Positions 5,022 to 6,418 of a DNA stretch of 64,000 bases are shown piece after piece. The stretch spans positions 627,501-691,500 of the forward strand of contig CANNCO010000003.1 of NCBI GenBank assembly GCA_947503175.1. Direction: 5' to 3'. Under the pieces are notes generated by a model that made no database searches, had not been told where the DNA came from, and worked only from the letters and a program-made list of their open reading frames with translations. This DNA comes from an uncultured Paracoccaceae bacterium (lineage in GTDB: Bacteria > Pseudomonadota > Alphaproteobacteria > Rhodobacterales > Rhodobacteraceae). Within the stretch, counting starts at the first letter, position 1. Each line of letters starts with the position of its first letter. The translations under genes were made by a program, and so were the position numbers.

Positions 5022-6338
5022 ATGACAATTTCTTCCTCGCTGAACGCCGGGGTGGCTGGCCTTGCCGCCAATGCCAGCAGACTCGCGACCATTTCCGACA
5101 ATATCGCGAATTCGGCCACATACGGGTACAAGCGTGCTGAGGCCGACTTCTCTTCGCTCGTGATTTCGTCGGGTGCAGGAACCTATTCTGCCGGTGGCGT
5201 GCGCGTCACGACGCAACGGCTGATCGATCAGCCGGGCGCTTTGGCGACGACCAATAATCCGACCGATCTGGCGGTTCGCGGGCGTGGTTTCCTGCCTGTG
5301 ACAACGGAAAGCGCGGTTGATAGCGGAACCGGCGATTTTCCGCTTTTCTTCGCCACAACCGGGTCGTTTCGAACCGATGCCGAAGGGTTCCTGAAGACGA
5401 ACACCGGCATTGTTCTCATGGGTTGGCCCGCAGACCCCGACGGTACCGTTCCGACATTTCCGCGGGATACGGGCGACGGTCTTGAACCGGTGCAGATCAA
5501 TGTGAACCAGTTCACGTCTGAACCGACGACCCGTATCTCCATGGGCGTTAACCTGCCTGCAACCGAAACTGAATTCGGCGCCTCGGGCAACCCGCTCGAA
5601 CTCTCGATCGAGTATTTCGACAACCTTGGCACATCGCAGAACATCGCGATCGAGTTCACGCCGACAGTACCGGCTGCACCGGGCGCTTCGAACACGTGGA
5701 CGATGACGTTGAGCGACTCTGCATCCGGCGGCACGCAGATTGGCGAATATACAGTTGTCTTCGACGATACACGTGGCTCTGGTGGCACAATCGCATCGGT
5801 GACCACCGTCTCGGGCGGTGCCTATGACGGTGCGACGGGCGAACTCTCAGTAAACGTCGCCGGCGGGCCGATTTCAATCAACATCGGCGCGGTGGGCAGC
5901 GGGCAGGGTCTGACCCAGCTTTCGGACAGTTTTGCACCCACTTCGATTTCGAAAGACGGCTCGCCAGTGGGCAATCTGATCGCTGTTGAAGTTGATGCGA
6001 ACGGATTCGTCCGTGCGAATTTCGACATCGGGATCACCCGCACGATCTATCAGATTCCCCTGATCGACCTTCCTAATCCGAACGGCCTGATTGCAGAGGA
6101 TAACCAGACCTATCGGGCCTCCAACGAAAGCGGCACGTTCTTTCTCTGGGATGCGTCCGACGGACCGACGGGTGATGTCGTAGGGTTTGCTCTCGAGGAA
6201 TCCGCGACCGATGTCGCGGGGGAACTCACGCAACTGATCCAGACACAAAGGGCATATTCCTCGAATGCCAAGGTGATTCAGACCGTCGAATTGTCTTTGG
6301 CAGAAGAAATGCTTTTGCCGGTGGCGATCTCGTTCTGA
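5022..6338 (+). CDS. flgE: Flagellar hook protein FlgE with aberrant C-terminus
   Basis: SLNAGVAGLAANASRLATISDNIANSATYGYKRAEADF; ends LIQTQRAYSSNAKVIQTV|ELSLAEEMLLPVAISF, where the last residues are antisense to a flagellin fragment. Confidence 0.9.
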   Translation: MTISSSLNAGVAGLAANASRLATISDNIANSATYGYKRAEADFSSLVISSGAGTYSAGGVRVTTQRLIDQPGALATTNNPTDLAVRGRGFLPVTTESAVDSGTGDFPLFFATTGSFRTDAEGFLKTNTGIVLMGWPADPDGTVPTFPRDTGDGLEPVQINVNQFTSEPTTRISMGVNLPATETEFGASGNPLELSIEYFDNLGTSQNIAIEFTPTVPAAPGASNTWTMTLSDSASGGTQIGEYTVVFDDTRGSGGTIASVTTVSGGAYDGATGELSVNVAGGPISINIGAVGSGQGLTQLSDSFAPTSISKDGSPVGNLIAVEVDANGFVRANFDIGITRTIYQIPLIDLPNPNGLIAEDNQTYRASNESGTFFLWDASDGPTGDVVGFALEESATDVAGELTQLIQTQRAYSSNAKVIQTVELSLAEEMLLPVAISF

Positions 6339-6418
6339 GCCATTGTCAGGTTCGAGTTAATGCCACGCAGGGTTTGAAGTGCGACCATCGCACTTGTATT
6401 GGTAAGTATACTTGACAT
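6278..6418 (-). pseudogene. Truncated flagellin N-terminus (46 codons), overlapping antisense with the flgE 3' end
   Basis: Minus-strand translation MSSILTNTSAMVALQTLRGINSNLTMAQNEIATGKSISSAKDNSTV*; canonical flagellin D0/D1 start, then stop. Confidence 0.9.

What the first reader, a model, noticed from the sequence alone, without database searches (positions are those of the whole stretch)
6278..6418. Flagellin N-terminus fused antisense into flgE: a rearrangement breakpoint
Seen: minus-strand 6418->6278 encodes MSSILTNTSAMVALQTLRGINSNLTMAQNEIATGKSISSAKDNSTV*, a flagellin start that stops exactly where it meets flgE. FlgE reads normally to SSNAKVIQTV then becomes ELSLAEEMLLPVAISF, the antisense of the flagellin, instead of the usual DEMLQ-type end. 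The shared string CAGACCG(T/C)CGA at the join fits microhomology-mediated recombination. flgK/flgL/flgI do not follow flgE. Inference: a deletion or inversion between convergent flgE and fliC removed or displaced much of the filament locus.
Basis: partly seen in the sequence, partly recalled or inferred. Interest (0 to 1): 0.85.

Follow-up and report, generated by a model that had tools for sequence, protein, structure and literature searches.

The report
Recurrent precise scar of flagellum loss
This bacterium lost its flagellum through a large deletion that joined the hook gene backwards to the start of the flagellin gene, and the same join, placed to within about three bases, recurs independently in many related marine bacteria, so an unknown mechanism that cuts at fixed points seems to delete these genes again and again.

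Summary
At window 6286-6290, flgE, intact to codon 420-421, is joined to the antisense of flagellin codons 1-44. The assembly (4.01 Mb, 16 contigs, 100% complete) has no other flagellin, no FlhA and no other rod or hook protein. An intact relative (Kangsaoukella pontilimi) has the same flanking genes with 25.8 kb of flagellar genes in between, so a deletion explains the junction. It is present in 12 of 397 sampled genera, 8 of 80 named FlgE loci and about 22 of the 120 closest FlgE proteins. It always falls at the same codon, with the crossover confined to about 3 bp. On a FlgE tree the scar needs 24 changes (at least 21 forced), and a single origin is rejected (p 6e-5). A second join uses the same flagellin codon with motB codon ~55 as partner. 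Best reading: the scar of a repeatedly occurring, fixed-breakpoint (site-specific) deletion of the fla1 flagellar cluster. The enzyme or lesion is unknown. I found no earlier report in the papers searched.

The parts
4077..4928 (+). motB, left flank; in other lineages the alternative partner site is at about codon 55
   Evidence: Pfam MotB_plug and OmpA; same position left of flgE in G001 and G072; alternative motB junctions
5022..6338 (+). chimeric flgE: native to codon 420-421 (about 6286), then 17 codons of antisense flagellin
   Evidence: Pfam Flg_bb_rod, FlgE_D2, Flg_bbr_C
6286..6290 (.). junction interval; last flgE-specific base T6286, first flagellin-specific base A6290
   Evidence: comparison with intact flgE and flagellin sites and with 19 other scar loci
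6278..6418 (-). first 44 codons of fliC (flagellin), codons 45-46 (TV) and the stop coming from antisense flgE
6592..6930 (-). FlgN-like chaperone gene, retained right flank
   Evidence: Pfam FlgN E 1e-4, below cut-off; homologue beside fliC in same-genus G001
6923..7249 (-). flgJ-like rod-binding protein gene, retained
   Evidence: Pfam Rod-binding; beside fliC in G001, G008, G072
7164..9296 (+). fliK hook-length control gene, retained (true start may lie downstream of 7164)
   Evidence: Pfam Flg_hook
9306..9986 (+). flgD hook cap gene, retained
   Evidence: Pfam FlgD and FlgD_ig
9989..11518 (-). ubiB, conserved non-flagellar right border
   Evidence: same position next to flgD in G008 and G072 and in most scar loci
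16015..17397 (+). dnaA, showing the locus lies near the replication origin region
   Evidence: Pfam Bac_DnaA E 1e-67

Best explanation
The join is the scar of a deletion that removed the core of the fla1-type flagellar cluster (flgK to the 3' part of fliC), leaving motB, the 5' 98% of flgE, the first 44 codons of fliC, flgN, flgJ, fliK and flgD. It is one instance of a recurrent event. Across Rhodobacterales the flagellum has been lost many times independently at exactly this join (flagellin codon 44 with flgE codon 420-421), and in some lineages at the same flagellin codon with motB codon ~55. Shown: the join, the loss, the recurrence and the base-level precision. Inferred: because neighbouring homology is ordinary and the crossover always falls in the same ~3 bp with flgE sequence on the left, the event is most likely site-specific, that is a fixed cut in fliC and a fixed cut in flgE or motB followed by joining of the chromosome ends, made by an unidentified recombinase, or by a nuclease plus end joining (my estimate for this step about 0.5). 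The result is a non-motile lineage.
For: Join and loss. Intact counterpart with identical flanks, sites 25,833 bp apart. Same scar in 8 of 80 named genome loci including Roseivivax halotolerans and Pseudooceanicola nanhaiensis, 12 of 397 genera, 10 of them at 0 mismatches, and about 22 of 120 FlgE clusters including Boseongicola aestuarii. Scar genomes lack fla1 FlhA in 12 of 12; of 8 further scar genomes, 5 have no FlhA and 3 only a divergent one. Independent origins: 24 changes, at least 21 forced, 0 of 200 bootstrap trees with one; AU p 6e-5. Precision. Flagellin-side survey: at least 34 of 87 breaks at codons 44-47, at most 2 at any other position; motB partner confirmed, at codon ~54-56. 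Published fla1 phylogeny is vertical with sporadic independent losses (PMC12363192). Yoonia algicola, whose 3,633,885-bp chromosome carries the scar-type fragment, is described as non-motile (PMC11482539).
Against: No recombinase or nuclease was identified, and I recognised none among the ORFs of the intact cluster (by reading). Synonymous positions at the flgE site vary freely, so it does not look like a maintained DNA element. The motB site shares almost nothing with the flgE site (inspection). Other junctions also exist (Silicimonas algicola flgI-flgD). The motB type was not found in the 397 genomes and is known here only from protein-database fragments. In the same-genus genome G001 the flgE operon and the fliC cluster lie on different contigs, so the size of the deletion in this lineage is not certain.
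Confidence: 0.72

Rival explanations
1. Recurrent microhomology-mediated or template-switch deletion: both sites encode conserved protein motifs and so always share a short imperfect repeat (CCAGACNGYNG); slippage or end joining there recurs, with polarity fixed by fork direction near oriC.
For: A 12-bp imperfect repeat exists in direct orientation; the locus is near dnaA, and fla1 lies near oriC in P. inhibens and D. shibae (PMC12363192).
Against: Only 7-10 of 12 bases match; hundreds to thousands of equal or better pairs lie between flgE and fliC alone and about 19,000 direct pairs of at least 10/12 lie 15-33 kb apart in a cluster; the motB partner shares almost no core with fliC.
Confidence: 0.2
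2. One ancestral scar allele spread by homologous recombination (for example through gene transfer agents): incoming DNA carrying the join replaces the intact cluster in one double crossover.
For: Explains the identical join and fixed polarity without a special enzyme; gene transfer agents are thought to be nearly universal in the order (background knowledge, mentioned in PMC12363192).
Against: No excess of scar-to-scar similarity next to the join; third-position identity to intact relatives does not drop near it; lineage-specific changes survive 3-4 codons from the join, e.g. NAKII in L170 and its intact relative L022.
Confidence: 0.1
3. A programmed, regulated excision that turns motility off irreversibly in part of a population, the scar strains being its descendants.
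For: Precision, polarity, scattered distribution among intact relatives, and open flagellin fragments in all 19 other scar loci read at DNA level.
Against: No dedicated recombinase, no DNA-level conservation of the sites, and no excised-circle junction found in viral contigs; populations were not examined.
Confidence: 0.2
4. Assembly or chimera artefact.
For: Draft assembly of 16 contigs.
Against: Same join in many independent genomes and metagenomes, and in a chromosome reported complete (Yoonia algicola); flagellar genes absent genome-wide.
Confidence: 0.02

Closest known systems
Sporadic loss of the fla1 flagellar gene cluster in Rhodobacterales (Tomasch et al. 2025, PMC12363192)
   Same: Independent losses of the vertically inherited, oriC-proximal fla1 cluster in scattered lineages.
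   Different: The main text reports presence or absence only; no scar, shared breakpoint or mechanism is described (find for remnant, pseudogene and lost gave none).
Developmental excision elements (Anabaena nifD element, Bacillus skin element; from memory)
   Same: Precise loss of a large segment between fixed points inside genes.
   Different: Those carry their own recombinase, act at short exact repeats and restore a gene; here no recombinase is known, there is no exact repeat and a functional system is destroyed.
Hin/Gin-type flagellar phase inversion (from memory)
   Same: Site-specific recombination affecting flagellin expression.
   Different: Here the intervening DNA is absent and the junction is a deletion; no reverse orientation was found.
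Fragile-site recurrent deletions (for example stickleback Pitx1 enhancer; commentary PMC6383211 found, details from memory)
   Same: The same deletion arises repeatedly in independent lineages and drives parallel loss of a trait.
   Different: In that case breakpoints differ between events; here they agree to about 3 bp across genera.

Membership tests
Microhomology-mediated deletion | Breakpoints lie in the best available short homology | tested here: not met
   7-10 of 12 matches; hundreds of equal or better pairs
Microhomology-mediated deletion | Breakpoints differ between independent events | tested here: not met
   One junction in all flgE-type scars examined, at least 21 forced changes
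Site-specific excision | Same base-level junction in independent events | tested here: met
   Crossover within about 3 bp in 20 scar loci including the window
Site-specific excision | Identical core or recognisable recombinase site at both ends | tested here: not met
   No exact shared core beyond 1-3 bp at the crossover; wobble positions vary
Site-specific excision | A responsible recombinase | tested here: inconclusive
   None recognised by reading the ORFs of the intact cluster; rest of the genome not tested
Flagellar inversion switch | Intervening DNA retained, reciprocal junction present | tested here: not met
   No FlhA and no second flagellin in the genome
fla1 flagellar cluster remnant | Order motB-flgE ... 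fliC-flgN-flgJ-fliK-flgD-ubiB | tested here: met
   Same order with 25.8 kb between the two sites in G072

The most novel reading that the evidence does not exclude
Rhodobacterales possess a site-specific, possibly regulated, excision process that cuts at codon 44 of the flagellin gene and at fixed codons of flgE or motB. It deletes the flagellar cluster in single cells and repeatedly founds permanently sessile lineages.
Probability: 0.25. Interest if true: 0.95.

Novelty: new variant of a known kind. Interest (0 to 1): 0.82.

Why it matters
Parallel loss of a complex organelle is usually treated as random decay. Here independent losses share one base-level breakpoint without special homology, which means a specific DNA-processing step probably creates them. 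The scar also gives a simple genomic marker for flagellum loss (12 of 397 genera sampled), shows losses in progress, and makes the swim-to-stick transition of an abundant marine group open to direct mechanistic test.

Tried and rejected
Inversion or displacement within the genome: rejected, no FlhA or second flagellin. Intact hook or filament genes elsewhere: none. One-off misassembly: rejected by recurrence. Shared donor tract around the join: not seen. Excised circle or scar in viral contigs: 0 hits. motB-type scar in the 397 genomes: 4 hits at 2 mismatches; two at least are clearly unrelated by sequence, and all are treated as chance because the pattern's backwards control also gave one. 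FlgK VIQTV as an alternative partner: no such scar seen among hits allowing 3 mismatches, and the motif is not conserved in FlgK. One search used a mistyped pattern (one base too many; even the window missed) and is discarded. In one search the printed core match counts (5 and 3) are off by one base; the valid counts are. P0127 (flagellin fragment with a different IQTV-like tail) is unresolved.

Full report
What is there. The window comes from a 4.01-Mb genome in 16 contigs, rated 100% complete. From left to right the locus reads motB, flgE, an antisense flagellin start, flgN-like, flgJ-like, fliK, flgD, ubiB, ubiE, mutM and, further on, dnaA. FlgE is normal up to ...SSNAKVIQTV; then the frame runs into the antisense of flagellin codons 44 to 28. 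On the minus strand the flagellin start is intact for 44 codons and then reads two codons of antisense flgE and a stop. The stop at the join is incidental: it depends on an ATT codon in this flgE, and most other scars read through.

What was lost. The genome contains no other flagellin, no FlhA and no FlgE/FlgF/FlgG/FlgK C-terminal domain other than this FlgE. The best named relative by FlgE, Kangsaoukella pontilimi (G072; 87% FlgE identity), has the same two flanks with a complete cluster between: flgE, flgK, flgL and flgI forward; fliP, fliN, fliH and fliF reverse; flhA, fliR and flhB forward; the rod genes reverse; then fliC reverse, followed by flgN, flgJ, fliK, flgD and ubiB. These names rest on reading and on comparison with the published fla1 map (PMC12363192). 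The two sites are 25,833 bp apart there. Several other genomes have flgE and fliC in the same relation with FlhA between. A deletion in direct orientation explains the window. In the only same-genus genome, G001, the flgE operon and the fliC cluster lie on different contigs and the flgE operon is followed by tamA/tamB-like genes; the window genome keeps its tamA-like gene 135 kb away. The exact size of the deletion in this lineage is therefore not certain.

It is not a single event. A protein search with the chimeric FlgE returned about 22 of 120 clusters with the same end...VIQTV followed by antisense flagellin, among otherwise canonical ends; no other kind of replaced end occurred among the 120. 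Of 80 named genome loci, 8 carry it, including Roseivivax halotolerans, Pseudooceanicola nanhaiensis, Loktanella sp. Alg231-35, a Sulfitobacter and two Silicimonas bins, with the same right flank. A degenerate DNA pattern found it in 12 of 397 family genomes, each from a different genus, ten without mismatch. In those 12 the fla1 FlhA is missing: nine have no FlhA and three only a divergent, fla2/fla3-like one. The 8 named loci behave alike (5 none, 3 divergent), and their flagellin N-terminus of this type occurs only at the scar. Among named isolates the flagellin side adds Pseudosulfitobacter pseudonitzschiae, Yoonia algicola, Sulfitobacter sp. 20_GPM-1509m and Limimaricola soesokkakensis. 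Yoonia algicola was described as non-motile from a complete genome (PMC11482539).

Independence. A FlgE tree without the trait's own columns (83 rows, 27 scars, ultrafast bootstrap) needs 24 changes of state; at least 21 are forced by well supported branches, and none of 200 bootstrap trees has one. Holding the scars together is rejected, p-AU 6e-5. A larger quick tree (160 rows, 37 scars) gives 27 changes. The caveat is that these are trees of one gene and changes could in principle include reversals; published phylogeny, however, finds fla1 strictly vertical with sporadic independent losses (PMC12363192). In all 19 other scar loci examined at DNA level the 44-codon flagellin start is open, which fits recent events. 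In one of them (L160) flgE itself is now frameshifted, which fits decay afterwards.

Precision and polarity. Intact flagellins read DN(S/A)A(I/V)W here, antisense CCAGAYNGCNG(A/C)GTTGTC; intact FlgE reads IQTVDEM, CCAGACNGTNGAYGAG. All 20 scars (19 loci and the window) read CARACNGTNG(A/C)(A/G)TTRTC, apart from one with a diverged flagellin codon. The T at the discriminating position is of flgE type and the bases after the following one to three are of flagellin type, so the crossover lies within about 3 bp in every case. The DNA pattern allowed three mismatches and would have found the opposite type (flagellin base at the discriminating position); none was seen. The local homology is poor (7-10 of 12), and the same two genes offer hundreds to thousands of equal or better 12-mers; in the whole cluster about 19,000 direct pairs 15-33 kb apart match in at least 10 of 12 bases. 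Microhomology therefore cannot pick this site again and again.

A second join at the same flagellin codon. Searching from the flagellin side for short flagellins gave 87 proteins with a foreign tail. At least 34 break at codons 44-47, which is one true breakpoint blurred by chance similarity, and no other position has more than two. Some of this excess is favoured by the queries, which were flgE-type scars, but the other class is not: 26 proteins run after DN(S/A) into the antisense of motB, starting at motB codon ~54-56 in all 19 tested. The flagellin breakpoint is thus common to two partners.

Mechanism. The simplest reading is a process with fixed cut points: one in fliC (codon 44) and one in flgE (codon 420-421) or motB (about codon 55), followed by joining of the outer ends. 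A site-specific recombinase, or a nuclease followed by end joining, would give the precision and the constant polarity. I could not identify the enzyme, the recognition is not visible as a conserved DNA motif, and I recognised no recombinase among the ORFs of the intact cluster. Spread of one scar allele by homologous recombination would also give identical joins, but sequence next to the join is native to each lineage as far as tested. Replication-based template switching could give polarity near oriC but not the choice of site.

Novelty and limits. fla1 losses are known; the shared breakpoint was not found in the main text of the one comparative study held here or in the other searches; its supplements and subscription papers were not available. 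Other junctions exist, for example an in-frame flgI-flgD fusion in Silicimonas algicola, so this is a hotspot and not the only route to loss. About 84 of 397 genera lack any FlhA at E 1e-60; 9 of them carry this scar.

Noticed in passing
L052:13777-14466: Silicimonas algicola DSM 103371 has another flagellar scar: flgI (first ~60 codons) fused in frame to flgD, with flgE, flgK and flgL intact and no FlhA; the junction lies in a shared CCGA.
   Followed up: partly
window:37119-44525: An operon that looks like an archaeal/vacuolar-type (A/V-type) ATP synthase (B, I, A and small subunits), unusual for an alphaproteobacterium; read by eye only.
   Followed up: no
P0127 (protein from a 661-bp contig): Flagellin start joined at the same codon to an antisense tail that ends in TIQTV but does not match flgE; perhaps a third partner gene.
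   Followed up: partly
L160: flgE of this scar genome (G320) is itself frameshifted, consistent with decay after the deletion.
   Followed up: no
L076:9000-15000: Marimonas lutisalis has no FlhA and no fla1-type flagellin but keeps motB, flgE, flgL and flgI with a broken flgK; its loss used another route.
   Followed up: no
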